From assembly GCA_018524725.1 (NCBI GenBank), contig JAEUWP010000237.1, positions 1 through 64,000 on the forward strand: 64,000 nt of DNA. The letters are read 5' to 3'. Made by a program: the position numbers and the translations under genes. This document shows positions 4,925 to 39,505 of the stretch, piece by piece. The stretch's first letter is position 1, and every line of letters begins with the position of its first letter. Under the pieces are notes generated by a model, which was not told the origin of the DNA, ran no database searches, and was given only the letters and a program-made list of their open reading frames with translations. The DNA comes from Podaxis mareebaensis. Its lineage: Eukaryota; Basidiomycota; Agaricomycetes; Agaricales; Agaricaceae.

Positions 4925-7097
4925 TCTAGTTCCATCCTTGTCTGTCTCTGCTCCATAGTTATGTGTTTCTGACAGACTTGGACTTAGCACTATGTCATCA
5001 TAGTTTCCCAATTAGGACTTTAAATGTAGTGCTTAAATAGCCACTCTTGTACTGGAAGCACAAGCTTCTAATATTCTTAAATCACATCTATATCCTTCAT
5101 ACTTTTGTGATTAACATTAATTGATAATCAGTGTGGTAGTAAACTCTCTATTGGTTACATTCTTGACTAATAGAAGTTTGACCTCTAAATGTGCTTAACT
5201 GGCACTTGCCTCACCACCTTCTTACCATCATCTTTCTTGGTAGATCCTAGTGCTTGTAAACCATCTACTAAGACAGCCACCCCCTAGCTTAAACATAGGT
5301 GACCAGTGATAAGGACTACCCTAACAGATGGTGGGCATTGACAAGGGGTCTGCCAGAGTGTATAGGGGGTATATTGAGCACAGATGCAAGATTGGATTGT
5401 GCACCAGCAAGTGTTGCAGTTTGGTGGAGAATTTGACATGGAGGGATGAACAGTCACAACACACCATGCATTAAGCAACACTTCTTATAAGTGTGAACAT
5501 TGTGAATGAAAAAACCAATCCTATTGATTATACATGTATGACAAATATTGAAGAACAAGAACATCCTAGAATGCTTGCACAACAGGTGGTATGACAGAGA
5601 GTGGTGAGTTGTTGAAAGGAGGACAATTGCAGGATACTGGGTGGGACAGTCAATTCAAAATTGCATATAAGGGGAAAGCCCCAGAACTGTGCACAGTGCT
5701 TCACAGCCACTTTGATCAACTGTGAAGTGTGGCAGAGTTTGAAAATTTCACAGTGCAGTGCAGTCAGTGTGAAGTGACTGCACTTTAGGAGCAGCACTAC
5801 CATACTGAACTGCTGCTCACAACAAATTTTTGTAGTATACATCCTAGTTGCCTCTGTATATAAATCCATAAAGTTTCACAATGTATACAAAATTTGAGCA
5901 AGCAAGTGCAAAATACCTTAGCCATCAAGGATATTTGACCATCAAAATCCTCATCAAAGCCCAGATCTCTCAGAGTCTCTAGATTTGGTGGGCTGTTCAC
6001 ATTGAAAGTGACAAAAAACAGTTCCTTACAGTGTAATGCACAATCTGTGAAAAAACCACACTTAGAAATAACACATAGGAAGCAGAACATGGAGGTTTAT
6101 CACTTTCTAACTTCAAGTGTGACAAAGGGCCAGTAGGCATCTATTAAAGCTTTAAACTCCAATATCTGCAAGCTCCAGAAGAATGCAGGGTGTTGTACAA
6201 AAGCTTCTGTCACTCTGAACCCCTCACAATTGCAAGTTGCCTGAAATACAGGGATTCAGCAATAAACTACATGAGCAGATCTGTGGATCACATTGAAAGA
6301 GTGTTTTAAAGACCACCCAGCTGGGAAGGGTGAACCAGCATTCCATGATATTTTTGAGCAGTCTAGGCATGGCCAGCCATCAAGAGGTGCATGGTTCAAC
6401 TTCCAAACATTGGTCTTACATTAAGCTCATAATCAACAGTATTTTCTCCAGCCATTGTGAGACAGCTGTCTCTGAGGACCTCATTGCCAGATTGACAAGA
6501 GGTGGAGATTGAAAGTCCATGTGACTGTTGTGTGACTATATTTTCAAACACCTGATAGTTTCAACTCGACCTCAAAGATGCCCTAGCCTCATGACATAGT
6601 TGCATTGTAAAATCTTTGAAAAACAGTATTCTGATAGCCAAGATATGTGAAAAGCTCCTGGTCAAGTCTCATGGAAATATGTTGAACAGGTGGAGAGAAA
6701 TTTGCTCGCAACTGAAAAGTTTTCAAACACACCACCAATGATAGTATAGCCCAGTAGTCCCCATAGTTATACCCCACTCATTTGCCTCCCACCCCCTCCT
6801 TATACAGTTTGTTCACCCATATCGAGTCTCTTCAACACCATTACTGCCAGAAGTGGGGTGTGAAGAACACAGGGAAGTTATGATGACATATGCATGAAGA
6901 TAGTCTGCCTAGAAGCAGAGCAAAATTGAGTGTATCAAAAAATCAGGCTCAGGACCCATCCTTGAAATGGTTCAAAAGTGTTATCAAGCAAAGGTGCACA
7001 ATTTTGCCTAATCCTTTTTTTTTTTGCTCAATTCACCCCTTAAAGATTGGCTGTTTAGAATAGTGGGAGGGCCTATCAACCATCCAGTTCACTAGAC
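4925..7097. other. CpG-poor DNA without a supported gene
   Basis: Several short minus-strand frames (5.3-6.1 kb) and plus-strand frames have no recognisable motifs and no second copy in the window. A T-run at about 7,016-7,025 has no LINE 3' end beside it. I cannot assign anything. Confidence 0.4.
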
Positions 7098-15376: not shown

Positions 15377-15833
15377 TTTCTTTGGGGGCTACTGGTGCGC
15401 GAAGCGTGGTTGCTTAGCAATAATCTCGGGTGACTCCGAAATGGTTGTATGGTCCTGTTTGGGTCTCGGGTGGTTCTGGGCACACTGATCACTGGTACCC
15501 TCTGGGGTTAAGCTGGCTTTCAAGTACCTGGGGAGAGATCTCCCAGGCTAGCGTGGGTAAATTACTCAGCCATGCAGCAAGTCATGTAGTGATGTCACAC
15601 TGTAATGGTGTGACTAAGCTGTGTGCTCCACCCAAGTCCGATATACTGGCTGAAGGTGGTGGTGCTCCCTTGGTAAAGGAGCTTAATCTGGGGTATATCT
15701 CAGGCCATTACTGGAAATAGGGCATTATAAGAGGGGGATTTGAGGAGAAAACAGTCCGATCTGGAAGCATGCTGAAAAAAGCCGGCCAGAACAGGATACC
15801 CCCCACCGGTCCGCTTCGGCATAGTTCCGGTAG

Positions 15834-16074
15834 TGTAAGGGCACGCCCTTACACTTAATTCGAAAATCAATTAACCCATGTCGTTGTGTTATATTTTGGT
15901 ATCAGTCTTGTTTACCCATCACTCCATCACCTGTTTGTATCTACTGTTTATTAGGGCACATCGGTTGTCGACGACAACCGACCTTTGCTTGTGCCACGTA
16001 GTCTCCCAATAAACGGGTTTGAACTATTTGGCGTGAGCGTGAGGTCTTCTAACCGTAAAGCATAAAGCTTTACA
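15834..16074 (+). repeat. 5' LTR of the young element
   Basis: It starts TGTAAGGGC, followed after two bases by the reverse complement GCCCTTAC, and ends GCTTTACA. Differences from the 3' LTR: CCG versus CTG in the segment after GACAA, and GCG versus GTG in the GTGAG repeat; both are C to T at CpG. The LTR should carry promoter and polyadenylation signals, but I cannot place them with confidence. Confidence 0.95.
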
Positions 16075-16157
16075 TTTTTTTTAGTTCACCGAGTGGACTA
16101 ACGCATGAGCAAAACGCCCTATAATACCTGACCACCGCGTACACATGGCAACCAAAG

Positions 16158-18365
16158 ATGACAACGCCCAACAAGCTTCGACGTGATAACACATCGGATT
16201 CACTACCTAGTGGCAGTAGCCGCACCGATAATAATGGAGGAAAGGGAAATTATCCCCACTCCAGACTATTTAAATTAGAACCCGTCAACAATAGTCGACA
16301 CAACGCAGAGAATCTGACTACGGGATCTAATACCGCAGCCAGAAGCAATTCACATACTCTGCCACCAATAGAAGAGGAGAGCGAGCAACCATCGTCGCTC
16401 GACAGGGCACCATCGCCCGAATTTAACACAGCAATATCGAGTGAATTATATACACTCAAAGAAAGAATTTCCCTCATTTTCGACGTGAATCATGTCGAAA
16501 GCCCTGTAAGAAGGGCAGAACTACGATTCCATGCAGAAGAATATACCGTCGAGCTGTTCAAGAGCTTGACGGATATACCAATAGACCCTACATCGGAGAT
16601 GTACAAGAATCTCCTATGTAAAACAATTAAACGACTTGCTTCGCTGTACAAGGCAGCAAAGCAACATAAAGGGGAACGACCCGAAACCCCCATGAATGAA
16701 ATCTATCGAGCAATGCCTACGGCTCGATCAAGGAAAGAAATAGATAACACAGGTGATGAGCACCTGTACAATCCCCTTTCACGGGTAGAATCACCATCTG
16801 AGGCCGACCCTACGGCGGCACTTGGTGGCACCCTTGACAAAGGAAAAGCACCGATCAGAGGAACTCCATCCTCTGCGGAACCAACCCCTTCAGAGTCGAG
16901 TATCACAACATACTCGACCCAACAAGCCTTAGACGAGCTGTTCGCCCCTCGAAAGATTGGTGAAAACGACGATGAATACTCTCGTCGTCTAGAAAGCCAA
17001 ACACAAGTGCTGACTGCCCTCAATAGGGCGATCCCCAATGCCTCTATCGCTCAACCAAGACCAATACAGAGTTCAGAAAAGCACTCTGTTAAAATTGATC
17101 TTAATCCGAGTGGAGGAGAGAGAGAAAAGCGGGTTGAAACTGGGCCATCCAAGCCCAGTATAGAATGCGCAGAATACTGGAGTGATCGAGTGGCACTCCA
17201 ACGGATGCGGAATGAAGACGTTCGACTATACGGAAGGTCGAAAATACCAGACCAAGGCATCCGGTTCATAGGAACAACCCCTGTAGATGGGGATGTCTTG
17301 GATGATAACGACCTAAGACGAGGAGCCTTGCATCCTCGACGATCGTCGTTACCACCACCCACGGCTCATGCAGCCGCACTAAGAGGAGCAGCCCCAGCCA
17401 CTCCTCCAGTATACCCCCCAACAGTACCACGACCATTGACCGGTCGTGGAAATCACCAAGAGGAAGGATCCGACGAAGGGGAGGAATTATACCAACCCCC
17501 TGAAAGACCAAGGCGAGGATATTCCCTCGTTAGAGACGTACCACCGACCTTTGGGTCCCCAGGCGTTGCGAACACCATTCGCAACCACACACGACTAATG
17601 CACGATTGGTTGAGTGCAACAATCCGAGAGTACCTCTCGCAACCATTTGAATTCCCAGAGGGGTACAGACCCGGAAACGGGAAACCCCCCACCGAGAAAG
17701 GTCTGGAGCCCTACAGTGGAAGTCCGAGGTTTAGTGACCTCAAAAACTTCGTATCCACACTCTGCCTAGAGCTTGCATTAAAAGGTCTAGGTGGAATGGA
17801 CCATGCAAGGGACAGGCTGCGCCTGTATACCCTACCTTACCACCTAGCTGGAGAGGCCAAACGAATGATCGTTCAGCACGTTATAAATGTTAATCAAACA
17901 AAGTTCGATTGGACTTTCGAGGAAGCGATCCTCGCCCTGTACGATCGCTTCGTGCTACCTACATCAATGCACGAAGCGAGAGAAGGACTCAAACGAGTCC
18001 GTTACAACCCTCGCATTGGAGTACAAGGATACTATGACTCCATCATGGACAATGCACAGTGCATGACTGTGCATCCCGATGATTATACCCTCATCGAGTT
18101 ATTCCTGGAAGGAATACCTGAGGACATGAGGACAGACCTGCTGTTTCATCAAGGTCTGTCCCCTGAAGCAAACTCGTTAGATGAGTTCCTCGCCTATGCA
18201 GTCTCATACGAAAGCCGATGGAAACTGACGTCATACTACCATCAGGCTCTTCGTCCGAATAGCAGGGGAGTAGATCCCCTGATGCATAATAATCGCCCAG
18301 TACCGATTCGAGAGCAATCTAGATCTCAAACGGCGTTCGTACCCAAGAAGGTAGCGAATGGGTGA
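16158..18365 (+). CDS. young element Gag (capsid-type) protein
   Basis: Start ATG at 16,158, 83 bases after the LTR; 735 codons to the first internal TGA (18,363). Residues 1-500 are hydrophilic and Pro/Ser/Thr-rich. The Gag core lies at about 510-730: FSDLKNFVSTLCLELALKG, YTLPYHLAGEAKRMI, ALYDRFVLPTSMHEAREGLK, then YNPRIGVQGYYDS and ELFLEGIPEDMR. It would assemble the particle. The frame continues unchanged past the TGA into the zinc knuckle, so Gag and Pol form one frame of 2,362 codons. Either the TGA is a mutated CGA or it is a read-through stop; mutation fits the rest of the element better. The decayed copy at 36.1-37.2 kb is homologous to the core. Confidence 0.9.
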   Translation: MTTPNKLRRDNTSDSLPSGSSRTDNNGGKGNYPHSRLFKLEPVNNSRHNAENLTTGSNTAARSNSHTLPPIEEESEQPSSLDRAPSPEFNTAISSELYTLKERISLIFDVNHVESPVRRAELRFHAEEYTVELFKSLTDIPIDPTSEMYKNLLCKTIKRLASLYKAAKQHKGERPETPMNEIYRAMPTARSRKEIDNTGDEHLYNPLSRVESPSEADPTAALGGTLDKGKAPIRGTPSSAEPTPSESSITTYSTQQALDELFAPRKIGENDDEYSRRLESQTQVLTALNRAIPNASIAQPRPIQSSEKHSVKIDLNPSGGEREKRVETGPSKPSIECAEYWSDRVALQRMRNEDVRLYGRSKIPDQGIRFIGTTPVDGDVLDDNDLRRGALHPRRSSLPPPTAHAAALRGAAPATPPVYPPTVPRPLTGRGNHQEEGSDEGEELYQPPERPRRGYSLVRDVPPTFGSPGVANTIRNHTRLMHDWLSATIREYLSQPFEFPEGYRPGNGKPPTEKGLEPYSGSPRFSDLKNFVSTLCLELALKGLGGMDHARDRLRLYTLPYHLAGEAKRMIVQHVINVNQTKFDWTFEEAILALYDRFVLPTSMHEAREGLKRVRYNPRIGVQGYYDSIMDNAQCMTVHPDDYTLIELFLEGIPEDMRTDLLFHQGLSPEANSLDEFLAYAVSYESRWKLTSYYHQALRPNSRGVDPLMHNNRPVPIREQSRSQTAFVPKKVANG

Positions 18366-19382
18366 AAGCAAATGCACATTCGAGAGTTACAGCAACTCTC
18401 GCATGATTCAAAGAACAAAACAGCTCGACCAGATTATAAGTCGAGCAACCACCAAGGCGCGAGGTGGCCCAGTAAACCACTGGACCACAACGCCGATAAA
18501 CCCACCAATGCCATAAAATGTTATCGCTGTGGCGGTAACCATTATGCCAGCTCGGACAAGTGCCCTTTGAAGGGCAAACCCTCACAGATCCGAGCAGCTC
18601 ATACAGCGATACCTGACGACGGAGTATCGCACACAGGAGAAGAAGACGAAGATCAGGCAGAAGATGACCGGCCTGATTATGAAGAAGAGGAGGACGACGT
18701 TGACAAAGATCATGCGTCAACACAAGCCTCAGAAGATGGATACGCTGAAGTAACCATCATCGAATCTGAATATGGATCCGATAGCGAGGACATGAACTTC
18801 CTCGCAAGTATCGACGATACTCCTGCAGAGAGCGAAATAAATGCGCTCACTGATTACCCCGAGGAAGATGAGCCTCGAAATCAATGGGTTCGAAGAGTCA
18901 CTCTTCGAACCAATAAAGGAAAGATATTACGCCCTCAGATTGCCCCTTGCGAGAAGCAATGTCTCGCATCGTATATCAGCGTTAACGGCATCGAAGCCTG
19001 GATGCTCTGGGACTCAGGGAGTACAACCTCCGGAATGACCCCCGCCTTTGCTCAAGTTGCTGACGTTAAAGTCAGCGAATTAGAAGATCCGCACACACTC
19101 CAACTGGGCACAGTTGGTAGTAGATCCACTGTGAAGTACGGCACGACCGTTGAATTAACAGTCGGGCCTATAAAAACTTCATCATACCTTGACATAGCGA
19201 ACTTCGATCGCTATGACATGATAATCGGAACCCCCTTTATGCATCGACATAAAGTGAAGCTCGATTTCGAGAATCGAGCAGTGATCATTGATGGAGTCAG
19301 CATTCCAGCTACCGACACCGTCGGTAATTCAGATATGCGGCTCCGTTGCCATCGTTTGACCGATAAACATCAGTCGACATGA
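18366..19382 (+). CDS. young element zinc knuckle and aspartic protease
   Basis: This is in frame with Gag. A CCHC knuckle (CYRCGGNHYASSDKC) lies at about 18,519-18,563. An acidic spacer rich in Asp/Glu follows (DEDQAEDD, EEEEDDVD). A retropepsin-type aspartic protease comes last: catalytic LWDSGSTTSG at about 19,003-19,032, then IIGTPFM at about 19,225. The protease would mature the Gag-Pol polyprotein. The segment ends at a TGA (19,380-19,382) followed by CTA. TGA-CTA is the classical leaky stop context, but four other TGAs lack it, so a CGA-to-TGA change remains the simpler reading. Confidence 0.85.
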   Translation, partial: KQMHIRELQQLSHDSKNKTARPDYKSSNHQGARWPSKPLDHNADKPTNAIKCYRCGGNHYASSDKCPLKGKPSQIRAAHTAIPDDGVSHTGEEDEDQAEDDRPDYEEEEDDVDKDHASTQASEDGYAEVTIIESEYGSDSEDMNFLASIDDTPAESEINALTDYPEEDEPRNQWVRRVTLRTNKGKILRPQIAPCEKQCLASYISVNGIEAWMLWDSGSTTSGMTPAFAQVADVKVSELEDPHTLQLGTVGSRSTVKYGTTVELTVGPIKTSSYLDIANFDRYDMIIGTPFMHRHKVKLDFENRAVIIDGVSIPATDTVGNSDMRLRCHRLTDKHQST

Positions 19383-21269
19383 CTATATGGAGGCAAAGAG
19401 CCCACTACAAATCGAGTGACGGTAGAGGACGTCACCGAAGCAAGTGGAATACACGCTGGGGAAAAACTCCCCCACAATTACCCCCATGTCCTCGAGGAGA
19501 TTCCCTCGAGGATAAGAAATGAAGACCATGGGGAGAAACTTCCCCGCCCACGATACGCGAGTGAACCTAAATTTCACCCTATCGTCTTGGTCGAAGACGA
19601 GCTACTAGCTCGTCAAAAGCGAGGACCACCAGCCCATAAACGGCTCATCGAAACACCAGTCGTCAAGGCAATGTACGACTGGTACTATGACCTGCGGATG
19701 CCTGACGAATGGAACGCCATGGTATCAGGCGTCTGGTCAATGAAACGACCCGCAGACGGACACCCACCGTCTACAGGATATACTCCAAGCAGTGTGGACG
19801 ATATTGTCCACACAGAAGAATTCACAAGGATAAGATATCCCGAGTGGTCTCTCAGGGACTATATCCGTAGTATGACAGTCATTCGTCTGCCAATGGAAGA
19901 CGACTGCATGAAACGAATCGAGGACACGCGTGCTCGATTCGAAACAAAGAAACCACCCGATAATCCGGGTGACCAGAACCAGCGCAAGATACCGCAGATT
20001 AAGCAGCGGTTGATGTGTGACTACCATGATATGATGCAAGGAACACCATCTCGCCTACCCCCATTCCGAGAGGTGAATCACGAGATTCACCTTATCGAGG
20101 AGAACAAGCGATATAACTATTGCTTGCCCAGATGTCCACAGTCCTTACGGGAGGAGTTCCATGCAAAACTCAACCGTTACATAGACGCGGGGTGGTGGGA
20201 ACCCCGCAATGTCATGCAAGCAGCCCCTTTGCTATGCATCCCCAAGAAGGATGGGCGACTGCACACAGTCGTTGATGCGAAGGAGCGAAATGATAACATG
20301 GTAAAGGATGTAACTCCTTTACCTGATCAAGAAGTAATCCGAGAAGACGTGGCTAGAGCAAGGTATTGCTCTAAGATTGATCTAGCTGACGCATACGAAC
20401 AGGTTAGAGTTCGACCCGAGGATGTGGAGAAGACAGCCTTCTCCACCATTGCGGGAACATACGTTAGTAACATCATGCAGCAAGGGGACTGTAACGCCCC
20501 TGCCACGTTCCAAAGATTGATGATGGCTATTTTTAGAGACGTCATCGGCATATTCGTCCATGCATATCTGGACGATATATTTATATTTTCTAATTCTGTG
20601 GAGGAACACGAGCAGCATCTACGGCTCGTATTAGACCGACTCCGCCAACAACAGCTCTACGTCAAAGAGTCGAAGGTAGAACTGTATGCAGACCGAGTGG
20701 ACTGTCTCGGTCATATAATAGACAATAACGGTATCCACCCCGATACCGATAAACTATCCCGAATCCACGAGTGGAGAACCCCTCGCAACTATAATGACGT
20801 GCAGAAATTCGTCAGACTCGTTAACTACGTGTCCAACTTTCTGCTGGATATAACTGTGTATACTGGCCCGTTAATGGCCATAACGCAGAACGGAACACCA
20901 TTCCACTGGCGACTGTTACATCAGAGATGCTTCGATATGATCAAACGCATCTGTTGTAAAACGCCCGTGATCCGACCGATAGATCCGAAGAACGGAGAAC
21001 CCATATGGGTTATCTGTGACGCTTCGAAAACCGGTGTCGGAGCCATGTATGGACAAGGCCCCAGCTGGGTGGACTGTCGCCCAGCAGGATTCATGTCCAA
21101 GAAATTTTCTGCAGCACAGCAGAACTACGCTGTGCATGAACTCGAAATGTTGGCTATCCTCAAGGCACTACTGAAGTGGGAGGATAAGCTGGTGGGTTAC
21201 CGAATCCACATCATCACCGATCATAAGGCACTTGAGTTTTTCAAAACTCAATCAAAATTGTCGAGTTGA
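19383..21269 (+). CDS. young element reverse transcriptase and RNase H
   Basis: The same frame continues. RT motifs: PLLCIPKKDGRLHTVVDAKE, SKIDLADAYEQVRV, the fingers/palm AFSTIAGTY and GDCNAPATFQ, and the catalytic AYLDDIFIFS at about 20,563. The connection (LGHIIDNNGI) and RNase H follow, with CDASKTGVGAMYG (first Asp), HELEMLAI (Glu) and ITDHKALEFF (third Asp). The stop TGA (21,267-21,269) falls in LSS-stop-QRRW, where gypsy RNases H have a conserved Arg before Gln. That is direct evidence that this codon was CGA. The enzyme would copy element RNA into DNA in the particle. Confidence 0.9.
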   Translation, partial: LYGGKEPTTNRVTVEDVTEASGIHAGEKLPHNYPHVLEEIPSRIRNEDHGEKLPRPRYASEPKFHPIVLVEDELLARQKRGPPAHKRLIETPVVKAMYDWYYDLRMPDEWNAMVSGVWSMKRPADGHPPSTGYTPSSVDDIVHTEEFTRIRYPEWSLRDYIRSMTVIRLPMEDDCMKRIEDTRARFETKKPPDNPGDQNQRKIPQIKQRLMCDYHDMMQGTPSRLPPFREVNHEIHLIEENKRYNYCLPRCPQSLREEFHAKLNRYIDAGWWEPRNVMQAAPLLCIPKKDGRLHTVVDAKERNDNMVKDVTPLPDQEVIREDVARARYCSKIDLADAYEQVRVRPEDVEKTAFSTIAGTYVSNIMQQGDCNAPATFQRLMMAIFRDVIGIFVHAYLDDIFIFSNSVEEHEQHLRLVLDRLRQQQLYVKESKVELYADRVDCLGHIIDNNGIHPDTDKLSRIHEWRTPRNYNDVQKFVRLVNYVSNFLLDITVYTGPLMAITQNGTPFHWRLLHQRCFDMIKRICCKTPVIRPIDPKNGEPIWVICDASKTGVGAMYGQGPSWVDCRPAGFMSKKFSAAQQNYAVHELEMLAILKALLKWEDKLVGYRIHIITDHKALEFFKTQSKLSS

Positions 21270-23243
21270 CAACGACGATGGCTCGACTATATGTCGAGGT
21301 TCGACTTTGACATAACATACGTCAAAGGAGAACGCAACAAGATTGCCGACTGTCTCTCGCGATACTACGAGAGTGATCGACCGGGGGAAGAGCACCCCAG
21401 TGGGGAATATGTACAGGCCGACTTTCGTATCGACCCCAAAGGGGACGACTTGCCAGCACCAAGAAGAGCAGAGATACAACGTCTGCAAGACCGACTGGCA
21501 GCTATAAACGACGAAGGAGTCAGGCGAAGCGCCAGACTCCAAGAAAAGCGCGAACAACGAGATATTGAAGCTGAAGAGCTTCAAGAGGCAGCCGCCCTCC
21601 GTGCTGTAGAACCAGATACTGGCCGAGCGAAACGCTCGACACAAAAACGCAAAACCAAGGGAATAACCCTTGGTGAGTCACTCTCTGCAACTGACAACTC
21701 CGCCAGTTTCACCATTGGGGACGACTTCATTGACAAAGTCGTCGCCGGATACAATGCAGACTCATTAATGAGTATAGTCAAACAATCCCCAGAGAAGTAT
21801 AGAGACTTCTCTGTGGATAACCGAGGAGTGATCATGAAAAAAACTCCCCTAGGAGACCGAGTCGTATGTATCCCAAATGACAGGCGACTCATAACCCAGG
21901 TACTGACGAAGGCCCACGAAATTGTGGGACATCTAGGCGACCAACAGACGGCAGAGTACATCCGCAGATGGTACTGGTGGCCGTCGTTGGTAAAAGATTG
22001 TCGCAAGTTCTGTGGAACTTGCAAAACGTGTGCTCGAACCAAGACATCGAACACAAAACCCAGTGGAGAGCTACACTCTCTACCGGTTCCTACCAAACCC
22101 TGGGACTCAATCGGGATGGACTTCGTTGGTCCATTCCCAGAATCCAGAGGCTTCAACTATCTCTGGGTAGTTATGTGCCGAATGACGAGCATGGTGCACT
22201 TAATACCAGTGCACACAAAAATGACAGCGTCAGAGCTGTCATGGGTTTACGTACGAGATATCGTACGCTTACACAGTCTACCGAGCTCGATTGTGAGCGA
22301 TCGAGACTCGAAATTCACATCCACCTGGTGGAGAGAACTCCACAAGGTATTAGGAGCGAAGCTCCTAATGTCAACTTCTTTTCACCCTCAAACAGATGGC
22401 CAGACCGAACGAATGAATCGCAACATCGGTCAGATCTTCCGTGCAACGGTACGCTACGACCAAACTAATTGGGTCGACAAAGCACCATTAACCGAGTTTG
22501 CAATCAACTCGAGCATCTCGGCTACCATGAAATATGCCCCATTCGAGTTGAATTACGGTTATATGCCGTCCATGATCCGGGACGGCCGCAATGCCGAAAC
22601 CGTCCACAAAGGGATAAAAACCTTTGCAGAAGCAGCGCTGCTAAACTTAGCAGCCGCCCATGACACAATAATAGAATCGCGGGTTTTCCAAACCCACAAT
22701 GCCAACAAAAAACGAGGGCCAGAACCTCGTATCGAGAAAGGAGACTTAGTCTACCTTTCCACACAGAACCTCTCGTTACCAAAAGACAGAGCTCGAAAGC
22801 TCTGTCCAAAGTTTATAGGACCCTACAAGGTCCTAGAATCGAAGCCAGAGACTTCCAATTACAAATTGGAACTGCCTCCAGTGTTATTACGCCGGAAAAT
22901 CCATCCGGTGTTTCACGTAAACCTTCTGAGGCCATACCATGCCTCAGACGATACATTATTCCTGGAGCGATCGCGGCCCAAGCCATACGACTTCGGGTTT
23001 GACGACGAGCACAAATGGTTCGTCGAAGAGATCGTAGGCCATCGGTTCACCAACGATGGTAAAATCGAATTTCAGGTCCGGTGGAGTCTGGGAGACACCA
23101 CTTGGGAACCAATACAACACTGCGAAGAACTCGCGGCATTGGATAGGTACCTGGAGCTGCAAGGGGTGTCGAAGGTTCAGCAACTTCGACCCCGATCACA
23201 GCCTACCAGAAATGGTAGGTACAAATCAGGTCGAAGAGATTAA
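21270..23243 (+). CDS. young element RNase H end, integrase and chromodomain
   Basis: Continuing the frame, RNase H ends with FDFDITYVKGERNKIADCLSR. A basic, charged spacer follows, then the integrase: HHCC zinc site (HEIVGH, then CGTCKTC), the DDE core (MDFVGP, SDRDSKF, DGQTERMN) and a GPY/F-type region (KFIGPYKVL). A chromodomain occupies the C-terminus (WFVEEIVGHR, FQVRWSLGDTTWEP). Chromodomains of chromoviruses bind modified histones and steer insertion to heterochromatin. This fits the position inside a repeat block. The reading ends at a TAA (23,241-23,243), the first non-TGA stop and so probably the true end. Confidence 0.92.
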   Translation, partial: QRRWLDYMSRFDFDITYVKGERNKIADCLSRYYESDRPGEEHPSGEYVQADFRIDPKGDDLPAPRRAEIQRLQDRLAAINDEGVRRSARLQEKREQRDIEAEELQEAAALRAVEPDTGRAKRSTQKRKTKGITLGESLSATDNSASFTIGDDFIDKVVAGYNADSLMSIVKQSPEKYRDFSVDNRGVIMKKTPLGDRVVCIPNDRRLITQVLTKAHEIVGHLGDQQTAEYIRRWYWWPSLVKDCRKFCGTCKTCARTKTSNTKPSGELHSLPVPTKPWDSIGMDFVGPFPESRGFNYLWVVMCRMTSMVHLIPVHTKMTASELSWVYVRDIVRLHSLPSSIVSDRDSKFTSTWWRELHKVLGAKLLMSTSFHPQTDGQTERMNRNIGQIFRATVRYDQTNWVDKAPLTEFAINSSISATMKYAPFELNYGYMPSMIRDGRNAETVHKGIKTFAEAALLNLAAAHDTIIESRVFQTHNANKKRGPEPRIEKGDLVYLSTQNLSLPKDRARKLCPKFIGPYKVLESKPETSNYKLELPPVLLRRKIHPVFHVNLLRPYHASDDTLFLERSRPKPYDFGFDDEHKWFVEEIVGHRFTNDGKIEFQVRWSLGDTTWEPIQHCEELAALDRYLELQGVSKVQQLRPRSQPTRNGRYKSGRRD

Positions 23244-23322
23244 CTTCGACCCTGAGAATCCTACAATATATTACCAATGGCGACTTGCAAAAGTCACCTC
23301 TTCTCTCCCTACAACCACCACC

Positions 23323-25377
23323 ATGAACCCCCAGCACCCACAACAACCACGACAACCAACTGCCATGCCTCAGCAGAGCAGCACAAGCAGCTCTGCACCA
23401 TCAACATTCCAAGGACCCTGGACAGGTCCTGGGAGGGGGAGGGAGTCGATGGACACGACTTCAGACCCCATTCCAACATTTATGAGTCAGCCCGAGCATC
23501 AGCAAGGGCACCAAGACCCTCATCGCGCCTTATTGTTGACAATACCAACGTCAATGTCTCAACACCCACAATTCGAACAATGGCCGAGTCAACAATTCGA
23601 ACAATGGCCGAGTCAACAATTCGGCCACCCTCCATTCAATCCATATCCGCAGGGTTACCCGAACCCTGCATACTACCCTCCGCCACCGCTGACACTCCAT
23701 CATCCTACGACAACGCCTTATCATCCCTATCACGCATCGCCGCCACCGCCAACTGCACTTCAGTTGGCACACCACCACCACTACCCAACTGCGCCGAGTG
23801 AATACACTCGGCAACTACCTCACCCTACGCCCTCGACGACGGCCGGGCCGTCAAGAGCCAAAGGCAAACAACGCGCATCGGAGCAAGATTTGCTCCACCA
23901 ACAATACGAGGAACAAAACTCGGGCCTCGTATCCCGATTACGCGAGGTCGGACTAAACGACCTCCTCATCGACATGATCGACCCGTTCGACGAGTCGATC
24001 AATCAAGTTCTCAACGAGCTCGTTGAGATTATACAAAATAAAAACGCACACATCAGTGTCCTCGAAGGACGCCTCCGCCGCCTCAACGATACACTCTCCG
24101 CTTTACAGCAATCGAGAGAGTACGAGCTCAAGGCCACGATTCGTGCGTCTAAAAAGAGGACCTTGTCTGGTTCTCTAACACCTCCCAGTGGAGCCACCCC
24201 GGCTTCACTACAACAGCAACAACAACCCGTGTCGAGCTCATCAGCTCGACCTAAATCATACGCTTCAGCTGCGAGTAATGCAATGACTCGCACATCATCT
24301 ACATCTTCCAAAGTGAGCACTGGTAGTGCTCGCTCATCATCCTCATCCTCAAAGGCAGGTACACAAACCAAGCTACCACCTGCCACCTCCAAGAAGGCGA
24401 GTGCTGGGAGCACTCGCCTAACCACAACCTCCTCCAAGACTAGTGCACCTAGCACTAGTCAAGAACCAACACCTGTCAAAAAGTCGTCCAAGCGAAGGCG
24501 ACAGGATTCACCCGTCAGGACGACTGATGAGTCGGTCGCCCAAGAACCGGACGTCGCGCTCATCTATGATGACGTCCCGATGGACGACACCCCGCTCCCG
24601 CCGACAACCGCTTCTGAGCAGTTGTCGCGTATTGAAGAACTACCGTCAGGACCTGGAATTCCAGGTCCCACCTCCCCCACATGCAACTACAGACCACTCA
24701 TTTTGGTCCGTCTTCCCACCAAACTCGAGGACGCCCCTCGAGTTGTCCCCGACTACCTCACACCTGAGGACGTGACGCCCATGTCCTCCAGTGAGGAAGA
24801 AGACGCGGCCGAAGACTTCAAACCCAAGAAGGGTAAGAAGAAGGCCCCTCAATCGTCGACCTCTAGGTCGACATCTCGACCAATTATCCACGACCTGCCA
24901 GGTCGTAATGGCATTATTCCGTCCATGTGGGGACTATGGCAACACAGCCAAGTCCATAGTCGCGAATGCGACAACAGCATGCGGAACATGTTATCGTGGC
25001 GAGTTCATTACTCGCGACGAACCAATACCATGTTCGCCGGTGCCACCGCCACCATCGCCGCAATAACGGAATACAAAGGCCGGGAGTTCGAAATCCCGGC
25101 CACTCATCCAGTTTATAAGGCAGCCCGTCGTGGACTGCCTATGACCCCCCGCGAAGTAGAGAAGCTGCTCAAGCTTCTCAATAATCATCACGCCAAAGCC
25201 GAGCATCGAGCTGAGGCACACCACCTCCTGACTGAGCTATACAAAATAGCTCAGCGCACGGAGGAAGAGCACTACGATGACGCAATGATCTTCCTGTTGC
25301 GCCATAGTGGCTTCCGCCCGGACACGCACCCGTCCAGAATAACCACTGAAATAAGGGAAGAGCACCAACTGTCGTGA
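23323..25377 (+). CDS. second long frame of the young element, N-terminal part, unknown function
   Basis: I do not recognise this protein. The open frame overlaps the end of pol, but protein-like sense begins at ATG 23,323 (MNPQHPQQP). Residues 1-180 are Pro/Gln/His-rich with a duplicated QFEQWPSQ unit. Residues about 190-285 contain LLHQQYEEQNSGLVSRLREV and a predicted coiled coil (LVEIIQNKNAHISVLEGRLR). A Ser/Lys-rich region with basic clusters (KKSSKRRR) follows, then a compact tail (about 530-684) with PSMWGLWQHSQVHSREC and PVYKAARRGLPMTPREVEKL. TGA 25,375-25,377 interrupts the frame, which continues unchanged. The env-like position suggests an accessory protein, but there is no signal peptide or membrane segment. 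Confidence 0.75.
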   Translation: MNPQHPQQPRQPTAMPQQSSTSSSAPSTFQGPWTGPGRGRESMDTTSDPIPTFMSQPEHQQGHQDPHRALLLTIPTSMSQHPQFEQWPSQQFEQWPSQQFGHPPFNPYPQGYPNPAYYPPPPLTLHHPTTTPYHPYHASPPPPTALQLAHHHHYPTAPSEYTRQLPHPTPSTTAGPSRAKGKQRASEQDLLHQQYEEQNSGLVSRLREVGLNDLLIDMIDPFDESINQVLNELVEIIQNKNAHISVLEGRLRRLNDTLSALQQSREYELKATIRASKKRTLSGSLTPPSGATPASLQQQQQPVSSSSARPKSYASAASNAMTRTSSTSSKVSTGSARSSSSSSKAGTQTKLPPATSKKASAGSTRLTTTSSKTSAPSTSQEPTPVKKSSKRRRQDSPVRTTDESVAQEPDVALIYDDVPMDDTPLPPTTASEQLSRIEELPSGPGIPGPTSPTCNYRPLILVRLPTKLEDAPRVVPDYLTPEDVTPMSSSEEEDAAEDFKPKKGKKKAPQSSTSRSTSRPIIHDLPGRNGIIPSMWGLWQHSQVHSRECDNSMRNMLSWRVHYSRRTNTMFAGATATIAAITEYKGREFEIPATHPVYKAARRGLPMTPREVEKLLKLLNNHHAKAEHRAEAHHLLTELYKIAQRTEEEHYDDAMIFLLRHSGFRPDTHPSRITTEIREEHQLS

Positions 25378-26412
25378 GCGTACGAACAAGCTCGTGTCTC
25401 AAACCCCAAAAACCGGACCCAGGGCATGGGTTTCACCCAGCCCACGGGAGCCGGCCTCTTCAATATCGACCATCTTGGTCGATATCTTCTTACTCATAGC
25501 CGCCCGGGGTCCAACAACCCCGTCAATGGTATCTTGTTCGAGCATAGACGGCTCGTACACCATCGAACCACTTTTGGGTATGGCCTAGCTCGCTTCTTTG
25601 GGCCACCCGAACGTGGTCCTAACCGCGCAGGCCAGGTGAGATTCACCTGGCTTTTTGCTGTCCTAGTCGCATCACCGCGACTTTATAGAGAGTATATTGA
25701 GTGTTGGAACGCTCGGCATCCTGAATGCCCCTTTGTCCCTCAACCGGGACCAATGTGTTACTTCCGATCACTTGACATTGATGATAGTCAAGTGCCAAAC
25801 ATGAACCTCGACACCATTGCCAAGGTTCTCATCCACAATGGAGTCGACCCGTCCTGGGTCGACCATGCTTACCTTTTTGGGATCCATTACTTGGATCAAT
25901 CCTATACTGGTGAACCTAGTCACCAGTCCATGTACCATGACTGGGACGACGAACACATCCGTCGTCTCAACCTATATGGACCACCTCCGGCCATCAAGAG
26001 ATGGGACGGATGGTTCTACCCCAACGACCACGACCTTCTCAGGTCGTATTTCTTCGAACAACGAGAATTCCTTCGCACCGGGAAGGAAATGCAAGATGAC
26101 CCCGGCTGGCTAAAGGCCGGGGGCCCTACTCACTTCCGCCTTCTCAGTAAGCGGGAGTACCCTCCACACCTGCTCAAGCCCCCAACCACACCTGCGGTTG
26201 ATGGGCCCAGCAACTTGACTCCGCCCGTCACATCTAGTGAGGCTCAGGTCGAGGATCACCCCTCGACTGAAGCCTGACCGATGGAGGTTGATCGCCCCTC
26301 CATTCTCCATCCCGAAAGCGAGTCATCACCCACCGACGCATCTGATGACGATATTGCGTCGTCAAACAGCTCCACACCCAGGGCTGGGGGAATTTCATTA
26401 CCCCCCGCCTAA
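25378..26412 (+). CDS. second long frame of the young element, C-terminal part, unknown function
   Basis: Same frame as 23,323-25,377. After the TGA it reads through to a second TGA (26,275-26,277) and on to a TAA at 26,410-26,412; the whole frame is 1,030 codons with its stop. The segment looks globular: GRYLLTHSRPGSNNPVNGIL, TTFGYGLARFFGPPERGPN, GQVRFTWLFAVLVASPRLY, a Cys/His-containing stretch (ECWNARHPECPF), and HDWDDEHIRRLNLYGPP. The last part is Ser/Pro/Asp-rich. I know no enzyme family with this pattern. It resembles the body of a structural or regulatory protein specific to this element group; that is inference only. Confidence 0.7.
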
Positions 26413-26764
26413 CTTCCTATCGACGACAGGGGAGCGACCTAGTCGCTCCGCCGTGTAACTATCCTCGTCAAGTCTCACGACTTGATCCCACTCGTACCCT
26501 CTTCCAGGCATCACCGCCTGGCCCCTACCACAGTCAAGTCTCACGACTCGACTTCCTTCACACCTGGCCGAGGGACTTTACTCCTTCGGCCTCACCACTT
26601 ATTAAAAACTGTATCCGAGTGACCTAGTCGTCTCGGCCATATACCCTATACCCTAAAACCGAGCATCTTATTCGTCTCGGACCTATACCCTATCATACAC
26701 GACTATTTATTAATCCTCTTCTCTCTCACACCAAGAGACCATGAAACGGTCTGGAGGGGGGGTG
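26413..26764 (+). other. 3' untranslated region and polypurine tract of the young element
   Basis: Non-coding, with a repeated phrase GTCAAGTCTCACGACT (about 26,468 and 26,533) and clustered inverted repeats. The purine-rich run CTGGAGGGGGGGTG at 26,751-26,764 directly abuts the 3' LTR and is the expected plus-strand primer site. Confidence 0.75.
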
Positions 26765-27005
26765 TGTAAGGGCACGCCCTTACACTTAATTCGAAAATCA
26801 ATTAACCCATGTCGTTGTGTTATATTTTGGTATCAGTCTTGTTTACCCATCACTCCATCACCTGTTTGTATCTACTGTTTATTAGGGCACATCGGTTGTC
26901 GACGACAACTGACCTTTGCTTGTGCCACGTAGTCTCCCAATAAACGGGTTTGAACTATTTGGCGTGAGTGTGAGGTCTTCTAACCGTAAAGCATAAAGCT
27001 TTACA
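26765..27005 (+). repeat. 3' LTR of the young element
   Basis: 241 bases, identical in length to the 5' LTR and followed by the GGTAG target duplication. Where it differs from the 5' LTR it has TpG in place of CpG. Confidence 0.95.
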
Positions 27006-35506: not shown

Positions 35507-36135
35507 TGACTTGTACCTCAGCCATTGGCTATATCTCAGATCTCCTGAGCTGTAGTATATTTAGCATTCAGACTCAGTGTTACCTTGTATAGTAGTAGTC
35601 CTCTTTCAGTAGATCTCACACCTTACCTTAGGTTCAGTCTACTATTATTAGAACACTGAAGTAGTTATGTGCATCTTGATTAAGACATGTAAGATAGCAA
35701 TCATTCTGGTATTTAGGTAGCTTGTAAAGTAAGTAGAACTTAGCTTTATGATTGCTTGTACATAGTGCAAGAATAGCAGGTTTCCTTTTTGCTTTATCTT
35801 CATGCCACATGAGAGCTCTACCTGCCTTGACAGGATAACTGGCATAACAGCTAAACCACTGGAGTAGCCTGTGACCTTACAAGTTGTATCTCTTCTTTGC
35901 TAGTCCCTGTGAGATTTCCAACCAGCCTCTAGTTCACTAGGTGAACAGACAGGTATTCTGCTTAGGAACTTAATAGTGTCAGGTTATCTTAGGACAGTAT
36001 CTCTCTGCACTGGCATGATGACCATACCATGCCTAAGTAACATTGACTATGAATCCTAACTCTCCAATATTACCTCATTGGAGAGGTGAAAGAGATGTTT
36101 GTTTGCCATGTACTTAGTATAGATTGTAGTAAATA
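35507..36135 (+). other. non-coding relic DNA; 35,951-36,042 is repeated at 50.19-50.28 kb
   Basis: No coding sense. The segment from AGGTATTCTGCTTAGGAACT to GCCTAAGTAACA recurs at 50,191-50,282 with about one change in eight. It may be an LTR end of a third, decayed family or a sequence flanking one. Confidence 0.45.
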
Positions 36136-37174
36136 CAATTAGATGTTTAAGAGCATCATCATGGCACTCTATGATAGATTCATCAGACCAACATCAATAC
36201 ATGAGGCTCACAAGAGCCTCAAAGGGATAGATATAATCCCAAAGAAGGGATTCAACATTATTATAGCATTATCTTGGGATACTCACAAGATATGGCAGTC
36301 CATCCCAACTACTCCCTCATTGAGACCTTCTTGGAAGGTCTCCCACAAACCATGAGACACTTCCCCATATTCAACAGAGGATTGTCTCCTGAGATGAATC
36401 AACTTGAGGACTTTGTGGTACACATAGCTGATTATGAGAATTGGATGCAAAGCAGTGCCTTCTTTGAGAGAGTACTGAAACCCTCTCAATTACATGAACC
36501 ATCTACAGGCTTCTCTAGGAAATCTACCACAGCCAAACCAAGAATGAGGACTGCATAGGTTCCTTGTCACATATCCACAGGATAGGACTACATCCCTGCT
36601 CACAAGCTAAAGTAATCCTTGAATGCCTTTCCACCAAAGCAACTATTAAGACCTCCACCTCAGCAAACCAAACCTAAAGCTAAATTTAAACCACAGGTAC
36701 AGAACAAAGTACCTGTGAGGCAGACCCAAGGGAACAAGGCCTACTGTAAGGCCTAGGGCCTCACAGGAGAGTGTTGAGTCTTAGATCATTGTGCCCAAGT
36801 GCATAAGACCAGTTATATTGGTTCTAGCTACATAAACATAGGGCAAGTTAATGAAAATAAAGACCTGAAGAAAAAAAAGCTACAAACATGATAGCTACCT
36901 ACAAGTCCATCACAACTGTGAGAAAACCTGACTTAAGCATTCCTACAGCTATAGAGAAAGGGCCTTGTTACAAGTGTGGAAAACATAATCATTGGGCATA
37001 CAAATGTCCAGAGAAAGGAAAGCAATGCAGCTATGTGTAAGCTGCACACACAGTTGTTCCAGTGAACAATGAAGTTCTTCAGCTTCTTGCTGAAGAAATC
37101 AAACAGAATTTGACCTCAGATGAGAGTACTGAGGTCCAAGAAGAACTAGAGCCCAGTTATCAAACAGAGATGGA
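36136..37174 (+). pseudogene. decayed Gag and zinc knuckle related to the young element
   Basis: The translation contains IIMALYDRFIRPTSIHEAHKSLK, matching ALYDRFVLPTSMHEAREGLK of the young Gag. Then come ETFLEGLPQTMRHFPIF and RGLSPEMNQLEDFVVHIADYE, matching ELFLEGIPEDMR and GLSPEANSLDEFLAYAVSYE, with frame changes. A CCHC knuckle CYKCGKHNHWAYKC follows at about 36,967-37,008. CpG is depleted and stops are present. It ends at about 37,174, where antisense LINE sequence begins. Despite decay it keeps short perfect inverted repeats like those of the young element (for example 36,203-36,220 and 36,692-36,717). It is therefore an old member of the same group. Confidence 0.75.
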
Positions 37175-38689
37175 AGGATGGTCAATTGGAAAAGTGGAAT
37201 GCCTCAGTTTTGTCTCTTTCAAGGACAAAACCAAGGCAGGTAAGATATTCTTTGCAAGCTTTGTATACCTGTGAAAGAAGGTGGCAGTTGGTGTGAAGGG
37301 AGTCCAATTGAACAATGATAAGTCTGTCCATCAACAAAGGAAACTATTTTACAATGGGGGTTATTAGAGAAATTGTATATAAAAGGGGAAAGAGAAAGAG
37401 CAGTCAGTATAGGGGAAAGTGCAGAACCTTGGCCTATGCCTACAGCAGTAGGGAATTTAGGAGAAGTTTTATTGTTCCATGAATAGGTGGTAAAGCAATC
37501 TTTTAAATAATGAGAGAAAAAGGAAACAAGGTTAGAGTTGAAATCATGGCATTTTAGAACCAAGTATAGAATAGAGTGGTTGGTGGAGGGGAAGAACTGA
37601 GTGACATCAATTGTGATGATACTCATCTTGAGTTTGTGTTTCTAGCTGGATCAAACTTGGTGACTGACATAGACACTAGTGTCCTCTGTTGTTCAGTATG
37701 GTGGGAGTCTCCACAGAGGGAGCACCTTGGGTTACAAGCTTTGCATAGGTGAGTAGGATAGCCCCACCTCCAATACCTATTACAGAGAGGGCTGGCAGTA
37801 TGCATAGTCACACCTCAGAAGGTACAGACATAGTTCTCAAAAAGGAGGGTGTAGTTGGTGAGGAGCTTGGCCTTCATAGCAGTCTGTGATTCCCAGAGGT
37901 CAAAGAAGAGGATAGCTGAGTTGGAGTGGAGGGAGACTCAGTGAAATCATGGTTTACTGACAGGATGGTTGATTATATCATGGTACAGTGAAGACTCAAT
38001 GACTTCTTTAAAGTCATCAGCAGTGTAAGGGGATCTGTCAGGTCAGAAGTAGGGAAGGTTTGTCAATTTGATGAATGATTTGGACATAGGGAGAGAGGGT
38101 GCAATGGCATCCCCCATTTCAGGGGTGGCAAAAGCCAAGTAATTGGAGTCAGCTATACCCTTCTTTATGATAAGAAGCTCCTTGTCTGTTGTGACTTAGT
38201 TGGTGCTGAGCCAAAGAGTGCAGTTATTTGACTTAATGGACTCTACTTTAAGTAGAAAGCCCTTTTGGTAGAGGATATTGTTGCAGTTATGAATGACTAG
38301 GTCAAGTAAAGTAATGTGGATTAGCTTAAAAATATTATTATATGGTACAACAATATTTTTACACAATGGGCCTTGGGTGGCCTTAGGTTTGTTGAAGGGG
38401 TAGAGAGAGGAGGTTGATTTAGGGGATGGAGAGGATTTGATATCCCCAGATGATCTGAGGAAGTTAACAATGTCAACTGGCAACATTTGAGGGAACTGGT
38501 TCTGAAGGGCAGCATACTTCTGCAGTTTCTCAGAGTTAAGGGGTGAGTGGGAGGCCATCCTTGCATAAGACAATCTCTGAGTGGAGGGTGAAGGGGCATT
38601 AGACCTAGGGTAGGTCTTGTAGTTAATAGGAGGAGGGGTGGAAGAAGGGGGAGAAGGTTTAGGAAGGAGGGGAGGATGGGCAGGGGTAG
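37175..38689 (-). mobile_element. antisense LINE, 3' part (RT fragment joined to ORF1)
   Basis: On the minus strand the RT palm region is visible (IITIDVTQFFPSTNHSIL, VGIGQGSALSPILTALSLSP, KIVSFVDG). Just upstream (37,623-37,811) lies an ORF1 zinc-knuckle cluster (CNRYWRWGYPTHLCKACNPRC). Endonuclease and the first part of RT are missing, so the LINE has an internal deletion at about 37,690. ORF1 continues to 38,689, where element B interrupts it, and goes on at 47,970. Confidence 0.75.
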
Positions 38690-39505
38690 TGTTATGAATA
38701 TTGCAAACTCCAAAACCACTGAGGAAACTGAAGAGACTGAAGAGCAGTCTTACAAAGAATGGGATTTGATGAAGTGCATGATGATCAGCCTCTGGCAGGA
38801 AACCACTGAGTTGTGACAGACACTTGATTGGGAAATGTGTGAGAAGATAGATGAAGCATGCTACTACTATGGAGTATACTTTCCTTGTGATAATGATCTA
38901 TGATTAAACACTAAACTCACCACTTTTATTATTAGACACTTTCTATTATTGGACCAAGTATAAGTTTCAACCCTTCTGTTGTATTTGTATTGCATCAATT
39001 ATGTTCACTCACACAGACTTTTACCTATGACATATGCACCCCCTCCTTTTATGCCTATATCCTTCACACCCTATGCCCTATGCACCCTTTTATATGTTTT
39101 CCTTTCTTATTCAACCTCTATGCTACAATTGATCTACTTCCTTAAGTAGTCATTGGGACTTGTATATGTACAATGCTTGGACATGTAGATTAGCCAAGTC
39201 TAATCCTAACATGTGTTACTTACTCTTGGTACTTGGATAAAGTCCTTGAGCACCAGCATCATGTTAAGTCTACATCTCTTCATCTTTGTGGATAGCTTTT
39301 CCCTCTCAGGCTTTTCATCAGTGTCTTGTCCTATGGAGTGTGTGATCTATATGAGTTTGCTGCCTAGAGACAATGTGAACAGCCACCTGAGGTTAAACAG
39401 AGCAGCTCCTACTGACCTATATAGGACTAGGACCTCTGCTCACCTTTCTTACAAGGATAGGCTTTGACTTAGGCATTGCTTAGCCAAAGAAGAAACCTTG
39501 TAACA
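38690..39505 (+). repeat. 5' LTR of element B
   Basis: Starts TGTTATGAATATTGCAAACT, ends CCTTGTAACA, 816 bases, matching 47,149-47,964 with scattered transitions. Confidence 0.93.

What the first reader, a model, noticed from the sequence alone, without database searches (positions are those of the whole stretch)
15834..27005. LTR retrotransposon packed from end to end with short perfect inverted repeats
Reading the young element, almost every few tens of bases there is a perfect inverted repeat (arms 6-12, spacers about 0-17). Examples: GGTTCGAAGAGT/ACTCTTCGAACC (18,887-18,911, spacer 1), GAAGCGATC/GATCGCTTC (17,922-17,951), GTGGAGAAG/CTTCTCCAC (20,424-20,446), TGAGTTTT/AAAACTCA (21,233-21,250), ATTAGGAGC/GCTCCTAAT (22,349-22,369), GGCGAGTGCT/AGCACTCGCC (24,396-24,418), GACTAGTGC/GCACTAGTC (24,438-24,460), GGACCTGGAATTCCAGGTCC (24,649-24,668), and the LTR start GTAAGGGC/GCCCTTAC. 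They run through gag, pol, the second frame and the LTRs, so codon choice seems shaped by pairing. I did not notice this in elements A and B or in the host genes. Possible roles (inference): ordered RNA structure for packaging or reverse transcription, double-stranded RNA signalling, or a hairpin-based copying error that keeps making palindromes.
Basis: seen in the sequence. Interest (0 to 1): 0.9.

Follow-up and report, generated by a model that had tools for sequence, protein, structure and literature searches.

The report
Retrotransposon packed with perfect DNA hairpins
A mushroom jumping gene and its relatives carry, from end to end, short sequences that fold back on themselves perfectly, and the comparison of copies suggests that while the element was jumping something kept these hairpins intact in a way that fits DNA folding better than RNA folding.

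Summary
The element (15,833-27,005) holds 179 perfect inverted repeats (arm 6+, spacer 0-15) against 32.5±5.3 in dinucleotide shuffles, and 59 against 2.0 for arm 8+; synonymous-codon shuffles agree; elements A, B and flanks are at chance for arm 6+. Only inverted repeats are in excess, spacer peak 5, near chance from 16 up. Two families of one Ty3 clade in this genome have it; five other RT stretches do not (24 vs 23.2).

Variants shared by copies (inferred pre-insertion) create arm-7+ hairpins 31 times (13.6 expected) and break them 17 times (76); private variants are neutral (12 vs 11.3; 59 vs 61.4). Gains, losses and density give selection-like S of 1.6-2.7 at arm 6-7, agreeing less well at arm 8. 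G·U is counter-selected like A·C (6 vs 27.4; 6 vs 37.4), against RNA folding. Four loops lie inverted between copies. Arm copying is not the maintainer (3 double changes in 1,180 pairs). Best reading: selection, or conversion mimicking it, for Watson-Crick hairpins in the element's DNA; stage and benefit are inferred.

The parts
15833..27005 (+). hairpin-rich Ty3 LTR retrotransposon, family 1
   Evidence: 179 perfect IRs vs 32.5 expected; LTR match; domains
15833..16074 (+). 5' LTR, with 4 perfect hairpins (15833-15854, 15855-15874, 15961-15981, 16055-16073)
   Evidence: (99% to 3' LTR)
26764..27005 (+). 3' LTR
16158..18365 (+). gag-like ORF, 33 IRs
   Evidence: weak Ty3_capsid match, 14 bits, cut-off 29.1
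18366..19382 (+). aspartic protease frame, 17 IRs; ends in a TGA present in 15 of 15 copies read there
19383..21269 (+). RT and RNase H frame, 25 IRs
21270..23243 (+). integrase, SH3_Tf2-1 and (below cut-off) chromo domain frame, 38 IRs
23038..26277 (+). second ORF in another frame, one in-frame stop in this copy; C-terminal part kept in both families
   Evidence: IRs 33 + 16 in 23,244-26,277
18887..18911 (.). longest perfect hairpin, arm 12, spacer 1
22003..22022 (.). hairpin whose loop is inverted in copies C375, C381, C247
22681..22695 (.). hairpin whose loop is inverted in copies C47, C247
23605..23627 (.). hairpin whose loop is inverted, with one mismatch, in subfamily 1b copy L020
24395..24419 (.). 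hairpin (arm 11) whose loop is inverted in this copy relative to 6 other copies
36042..37172 (+). decayed gag fragment of family 2, hairpin-rich, interrupted by a stretch of about 200 nt found separately elsewhere

Best explanation
One clade of Ty3 LTR retrotransposons with a chromovirus-like domain order in this mushroom genome has its sequence, coding and non-coding, shaped towards short perfect Watson-Crick hairpins (arms 6-12, loops mostly about 3-10). Shown: the excess, and that it is found in two families and not in five other RT stretches sampled here. Shown for family 1: among variants shared by copies, those that make a hairpin are more frequent, and those that break one much rarer, than expected, while variants private to one copy are indifferent; and G·U counts as a mismatch like A·C. 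Inferred: shared variants arose in the replicating lineage and private ones mostly after insertion; the folded molecule is DNA, most likely the single-stranded minus-strand cDNA in the particle, or cruciforms in double-stranded DNA; and many interchangeable hairpins each give a small benefit (S about 2), for example by compacting or shielding cDNA or by preventing mispairing with other element nucleic acid. Hairpins lie at random positions and turn over, so the trait under selection would be hairpin content, not particular structures.
For: Excess and controls. Both families rich: 14 family 1 RT loci 11.1-16.2 per kb, 16 family 2 loci 14.8-18.8, 2.3-4.9 expected; five other RT stretches 24 vs 23.2. 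Shared variants: create 31 vs 13.6, break 17 vs 76; private 12 vs 11.3 and 59 vs 61.4. S from gains, losses and ln(excess): arm 6 1.56, 2.13, 1.71; arm 7 1.96, 2.50, 2.67. Four-fold sites: shared 2/212 in stems of arm 7 or more, 3/88 in arm 6, 10/104 in loops, 89/778 elsewhere; private 19/212 vs 70/778. Unfavourable codon register depleted, 17 of 102, 174 of 547 in synonymous shuffles. WC to GU 6 vs 27.4, WC to AC 6 vs 37.4, GU to WC 13 vs 5.5. Enrichment follows loop-closing energy, Spearman 0.86 (RNA) and 0.89 (DNA). Loop inversions at 4 loci, control 0.05 hits per replicate. Family 1 vs 1b divergence: arms 0.079, loops 0.167, rest 0.159. Random placement, CV 0.70 vs 0.69.
Against: Nothing shows the folded molecule directly. 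Loop energies do not separate RNA from DNA. RNA folding z is lower on the plus strand (-3.58 vs -2.44), though most of the gap goes when G·U is disallowed (-3.36 vs -2.96). At arm 8 the three estimates of S disagree (1.10, 2.09, 3.38). Hairpin-biased gene conversion would give the same numbers. In family 2 the stem constraint is weaker (15/221 vs 94/699 at degenerate sites, p 0.008) and no inverted loop was found. Window-private changes broke hairpins at the expected rate (15 vs 14.0) in the looser count. Between families 1 and 2 arms are only slightly more alike than the rest (0.303 vs 0.349). No benefit was tested.
Confidence: 0.5

Rival explanations
1. Genome-scale ordered RNA structure: hairpins in the genomic RNA are selected for packaging, stability or evasion of RNAi.
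For: RNA folding z -3.58 on the plus strand; enrichment by loop length follows folding energy; synonymous constraint in stems.
Against: G·U is treated as a mismatch; pairing outside stem ends is near chance and there is no clear excess at spacers of 16 or more.
Confidence: 0.15
2. Hairpin-biased gene conversion: when two co-packaged templates differ, reverse transcription or recombination favours the allele that pairs, without any benefit to the element.
For: Mathematically equivalent to selection, so it fits; explains why random, interchangeable hairpins are kept.
Against: No process with this direction is known to me (recall); it would have to be special to this clade.
Confidence: 0.15
3. 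Template-switch ratchet: the element's RT copies one arm from the other and so makes and repairs palindromes.
For: Four loop inversions; paired double changes exceed slid controls between subfamilies (12 of 713 vs 14 of 3,744 over six slides).
Against: Substituted sites are under-represented in arms whatever the cluster size; gains are mostly single-base; doubles within family 1 are 3 of 1,180 pairs, slid controls 0-2, within family 2 3 of 651, slid controls 0-2; unbiased arm conversion would not lower the rate of change in stems (inference).
Confidence: 0.1
4. Selection for hairpins in both sense and antisense transcripts, for example to stop them forming long dsRNA that feeds RNAi.
For: Strand-symmetric rejection of G·U and A·C.
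Against: No antisense transcript was looked for or is known here; loop inversions point to DNA folding.
Confidence: 0.08
5. Lower mutation rate at paired sites (shielding) makes hairpins long-lived.
For: All four transition types and transversions are reduced in stems for shared variants of family 1.
Against: Hairpin-making changes are raised above expectation (31 vs 13.6), which shielding does not predict.
Confidence: 0.03

Closest known systems
Coding palindromes in nematomorph mitochondrial genes (PMC6649704; abstract, discussion and part 1 of 3 of the results read)
   Same: Perfect inverted repeats inside functional coding sequence, no excess of imperfect ones, gain and loss between species, bias against the register that pairs third with third codon positions.
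   Different: There the repeats counted have arms of 15-142 bp in organelle DNA and the authors suggest repeat conversion; here arms are 6-12 bp in a nuclear retroelement, non-coding parts are equally rich, and variant data fit selection-like gain and loss rather than arm conversion.
Genome-scale ordered RNA structure of RNA viruses (recalled; PMC7642675 seen in a search listing only)
   Same: Structure spread over the whole coding genome, with synonymous constraint.
   Different: G·U is not tolerated, and there are no longer-range or extended imperfect helices in excess.
Template-switch mutation at inverted repeats (PMC8794818 abstract and passages; PMC8604942 abstract and discussion)
   Same: Spacer inversion and arm homogenisation are the marks named there; loop inversions occur here.
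   Different: Arm homogenisation is rare here and does not explain maintenance.
Ty3 chromoviruses, for example Tf1/Tf2 (domain names; the rest recalled)
   Same: PR-RT-RH-IN order and SH3_Tf2-1 domain.
   Different: Extra second ORF in both families and pervasive hairpins, absent from five other RT stretches sampled in the genome.
Yeast Ty3 genomic RNA structure (PMC11381356, passages only)
   Same: A Metaviridae element with mapped RNA folds.
   Different: The passages read speak of particular well-folded regions (9 shared between states), not of perfect short hairpins throughout.

Membership tests
Ty3/Metaviridae LTR retrotransposon | LTRs and PR-RT-RH-IN order | tested here: met
   LTRs 242 nt at 99%; domains in order over consecutive frames
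Chromovirus | chromodomain at the integrase end | tested here: inconclusive
   PF00385 22.6 bits, below its cut-off 25.1; SH3_Tf2-1 61.6 bits, above its cut-off
Genome-scale ordered RNA structure | folding energy below shuffles along the genome | tested here: met
   mean z -3.58, 78% of 23 windows below -2
Genome-scale ordered RNA structure | RNA pairing rules, G·U accepted in stems | tested here: not met
   WC to GU 6 vs 27.4, WC to AC 6 vs 37.4; one-mismatch stems GU 14 vs 3.2, AC 20 vs 5.6
Nematomorph-type coding palindromes | perfect repeats in conserved coding sequence with no excess of imperfect extension | tested here: met
   outside the stems 20-32% of positions pair, about 25% expected by composition; PR, RT and integrase frames all rich
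Nematomorph-type coding palindromes | arms of 15 bp or more | tested here: not met
   longest arm 12
Template-switch generated hairpins | loop (spacer) inversions | tested here: met
   4 loci in family 1 and 1b, control 0.05 hits per replicate; none in family 2
Template-switch generated hairpins | multi-base one-arm changes or double changes that make arms match | tested here: not met
   an excess of paired doubles appears only between subfamilies and families

The most novel reading that the evidence does not exclude
A clade of retrotransposons whose genome is written in a DNA hairpin code: selection with S of about 2 acts on well over a hundred interchangeable short hairpins in the reverse-transcribed single-stranded cDNA, a structural constraint on the DNA rather than the RNA form of a retroelement.
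Probability: 0.35. Interest if true: 0.95.

Novelty: new variant of a known kind. Interest (0 to 1): 0.85.

Why it matters
Pervasive structure in retroelements is usually sought in RNA (recall). Here gain, loss and standing density of hairpins can all be measured, agree fairly well at arm 6 and 7, and obey DNA rather than RNA pairing rules. If it holds, it makes directly testable whether the cDNA stage of a retroelement is itself under structural selection, and it offers a signature that helped to spot a decayed fragment of the clade by repeat density. Ten full-text searches of the held library showed, in the rows listed, no report of it in a retrotransposon.

Tried and rejected
Chance or composition: rejected by dinucleotide and synonymous shuffles. 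General repeat richness: mirror and direct repeats are not in excess. RNA structure as the main driver: disfavoured. Arm conversion: disfavoured. Multi-base template switching as the maker: substituted sites are under-represented in arms whatever the cluster size (10-15% against 24% of all sites, window arms, which did not yet take CpG sites out of the base; one search does and still shows about half the rate). A 5'-arm purine excess in the window element (A 221, C 222, G 290, T 179) did not repeat in two family 2 loci and was dropped. Relatives outside this genome: viral contigs gave none, genome contigs none; the protein search listed relatives named from mushrooms such as Leucocoprinus, Pleurotus and Trametes but gives no DNA. 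ORF2 C-terminal part: one relative outside, in Agaricus bisporus, no PDB sequence match, model too poor to use (mean pLDDT 41.6).

Rows dropped before counts: the family 1 stack holds 16 other copies plus the window; blast pieces under 300 nt or under 86.5% identity and loci L019, L020, L022, L023, L026 and L042 were left out. CpG columns were left out of the variant counts. Sites with too few copies were skipped. Polarity of variants is by majority base per site. Expected counts in the contrast of G·U and A·C are used as if they were counts, so its p is approximate. Family 2 site classes rest on one frame of L043 that contains stops, so they are approximate. In one search the minus-strand loci were not yet turned, so its rows with about 900 transversions are void; one search turned them.
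Full report
What was checked. The finding claims an LTR retrotransposon packed with short perfect inverted repeats. All quoted examples are exact. The element's LTRs are 242 nt at 99% identity, 15,833-16,074 and 26,764-27,005. With arm 6 or more and spacer 0-15 there are 179 repeats against 32.5±5.3 in 60 dinucleotide shuffles, and 59 against 2.0 with arm 8 or more. Elements A and B and the two flanking stretches are at chance for arm 6 or more; for arm 8 or more they are at or somewhat above it (A 4 vs 2.8, B 5 vs 1.5, left flank 9 vs 4.8, 27.1-38.6 kb 10 vs 3.5). My synonymous-codon shuffle, which keeps protein and codon usage, gives means of 5.3-6.5 where 25-38 are seen in the four larger coding pieces. 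Gag, protease, RT, integrase, ORF2, LTR and the 3' non-coding part are all in excess, 13-19 repeats per kb.

What it looks like. Only inverted repeats are in excess: 116 against 8.0 for arm 7 or more, while mirror (4 vs 9.8) and direct repeats (13 vs 9.8) are not. The spacer peaks at 5 (18 vs 0.3), is raised from 0 to 15 and near chance beyond (largest ratio 9 vs 4.1 at 30-39). From the second position outside a stem outwards 20-32% of positions pair, and 35-36% just inside, against about 25% by composition. Enrichment by loop length, window plus one family 2 locus, follows hairpin-loop energies, Spearman 0.86 with RNA and 0.89 with DNA parameters. Non-overlapping hairpins cover 30% of the element and are placed at random.

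Who has it. The genome (37 Mb, 429 contigs) has 40 LTR matches and, by RT protein, a family 1 (82-100% identity), a family 2 (59-78%) and other RT matches at 30-36%; 95 of 375 candidates were scored, so counts are lower bounds. Fourteen family 1 RT loci have 11.1-16.2 repeats per kb and sixteen family 2 loci 14.8-18.8, against 2.3-4.9 expected from 5 shuffles each. Five RT stretches of the 30-36% group have 24 against 23.2 in all, from 1 vs 4.1 to 9 vs 4.2. Element A, which has integrase domains (Integrase_H2C2, and rve just below its cut-off), is also at chance. The repeat-rich spot at 36.0-37.2 kb (tile z 4.1, the highest outside the element) proved to be a decayed gag fragment matching many family 2 loci at 79-84% and the window's gag at 39-45% amino-acid identity. 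Five tiles elsewhere outside the element, not touching that fragment or the element's edge, reach z 2.7-3.5 and were not followed up. Both families carry the C-terminal part of the second ORF.

How it evolves. Copies of family 1 were laid on the window's coordinates (16 copies plus the window). Variants shared by two or more copies are taken as older than insertion, private ones as mostly younger (inference). CpG columns were left out because the copies are heavily CpG-decayed. At four-fold degenerate sites, shared variants occur at 2 of 212 stem sites (arm 7 or more), 3 of 88 (arm 6), 10 of 104 loop sites and 89 of 778 other sites; private variants at 19 of 212 and 70 of 778, 9.0% in both. 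Scored on the window's sequence against random changes of the same type and coding effect, 471 shared variants create an arm of 7 or more 31 times (13.6 expected) and break one 17 times (76 expected); 377 private variants 12 (11.3) and 59 (61.4). A mutation-selection model gives S from gains, losses and standing excess of 1.56, 2.13 and 1.71 at arm 6, 1.96, 2.50 and 2.67 at arm 7, and a poorer 1.10, 2.09 and 3.38 at arm 8. Divergence between family 1 and subfamily 1b is 0.079 in arms, 0.167 in loops and 0.159 elsewhere; between families 1 and 2 it is 0.303 in arms and 0.349 elsewhere. In the RT region, at 63% identity, 14 of 67 hairpins keep all or all but one pair unchanged between families against 3.3 by random placement, so most have turned over. 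In family 2 the stem constraint is weaker: 15 of 221 degenerate stem sites vary against 94 of 699. A looser count of 93 changes private to the window copy found breaks at the expected rate (15 vs 14.0) and creations raised (10 vs 4.2), part of which may be CpG decay in the other copies.

Which molecule. If RNA were selected, G·U should be far better tolerated than A·C. It is not: among shared variants, WC to GU 6 against 27.4, WC to AC 6 against 37.4, GU to WC 13 against 5.5, AC to WC 11 against 6.1 (retention of GU and AC does not differ, approximate p 0.75); private variants are near expectation for WC to GU (21 vs 23.5) and WC to AC (26 vs 27.0). One-mismatch stems: GU 14 vs 3.2, AC 20 vs 5.6. 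Predicted plus-strand folds use 63 G·U among 1,021 pairs, shuffles 86 among 950, the minus strand 140 among 1,165. The plus strand folds somewhat better than the minus strand (z -3.58 vs -2.44); without G·U the gap shrinks (-3.36 vs -2.96). Four hairpins have their loop inverted between copies with arms nearly or fully kept, against 0.05 hits per control replicate; inversion needs the complementary strand, so these hairpins were acted on as DNA (inference). None was seen in family 2.

What it is not. Arm copying by template switching would give paired double changes: within family 1 there are 3 among 1,180 pairs and within family 2 3 among 651, with 0-2 in slid controls. They are in excess between family 1 and subfamily 1b (12 of 713; 14 of 3,744 over six slid controls), as compensation over longer times also predicts. 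Gains seen against subfamily 1b and family 2 are mostly one base (17 of 22 changed hairpins), and substituted sites avoid arms whatever the cluster size.

Compared with what is known. The nearest precedent is the coding palindromes of nematomorph mitochondria (PMC6649704; abstract, discussion and part 1 of 3 of the results read), with longer arms and a conversion mechanism suggested. Template-switch papers (PMC8794818, abstract and passages; PMC8604942, abstract and discussion) name loop inversion and arm homogenisation as marks. Ordered RNA structure in RNA viruses (recalled) fails here on pairing rules. The library searches showed no report in a retrotransposon among the rows listed; most subscription papers are not held.

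Verdict. The best reading is a selection-like force for Watson-Crick hairpins in the DNA form of one Ty3 clade. Which DNA stage, and what the benefit is, are not shown; hairpin-biased gene conversion would leave the same numbers.

Noticed in passing
window 36042-37172: Hairpin-rich decayed gag fragment of family 2 (79-84% identity to many loci beside family 2 RT matches), interrupted at about 36745-36947 by a stretch that matches separate places in the genome.
   Followed up: partly
window 19380-19382: In-frame TGA between the protease and RT frames in 15 of 15 copies read, unlike three other TGA stops, which vary between copies; might be a programmed stop or part of a spliced stretch.
   Followed up: partly
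window 23038-26277: Second ORF overlapping the end of pol in another frame; its C-terminal part has 65 matches in this genome and one outside relative (Agaricus bisporus), no Pfam domain found; a possible hairpin-binding protein (speculation).
   Followed up: partly
family 1 loci L029-L042: CpG observed/expected falls from 1.03 in the window copy to 0.06 in the most decayed, and inner stops in copies are mostly TGA: strong CpG decay that could serve as a clock.
   Followed up: partly
L027 and L028 (copies C241 and C381): Insertions of about 1.4 kb and 2.1 kb inside family 1 copies.
   Followed up: no
window 5201-6000, 37601-38800, 48401-49200, 56801-57600: Tiles outside the element with repeat density z 2.7-3.5 against shuffles; may be chance among 158 tiles or further fragments.
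   Followed up: no
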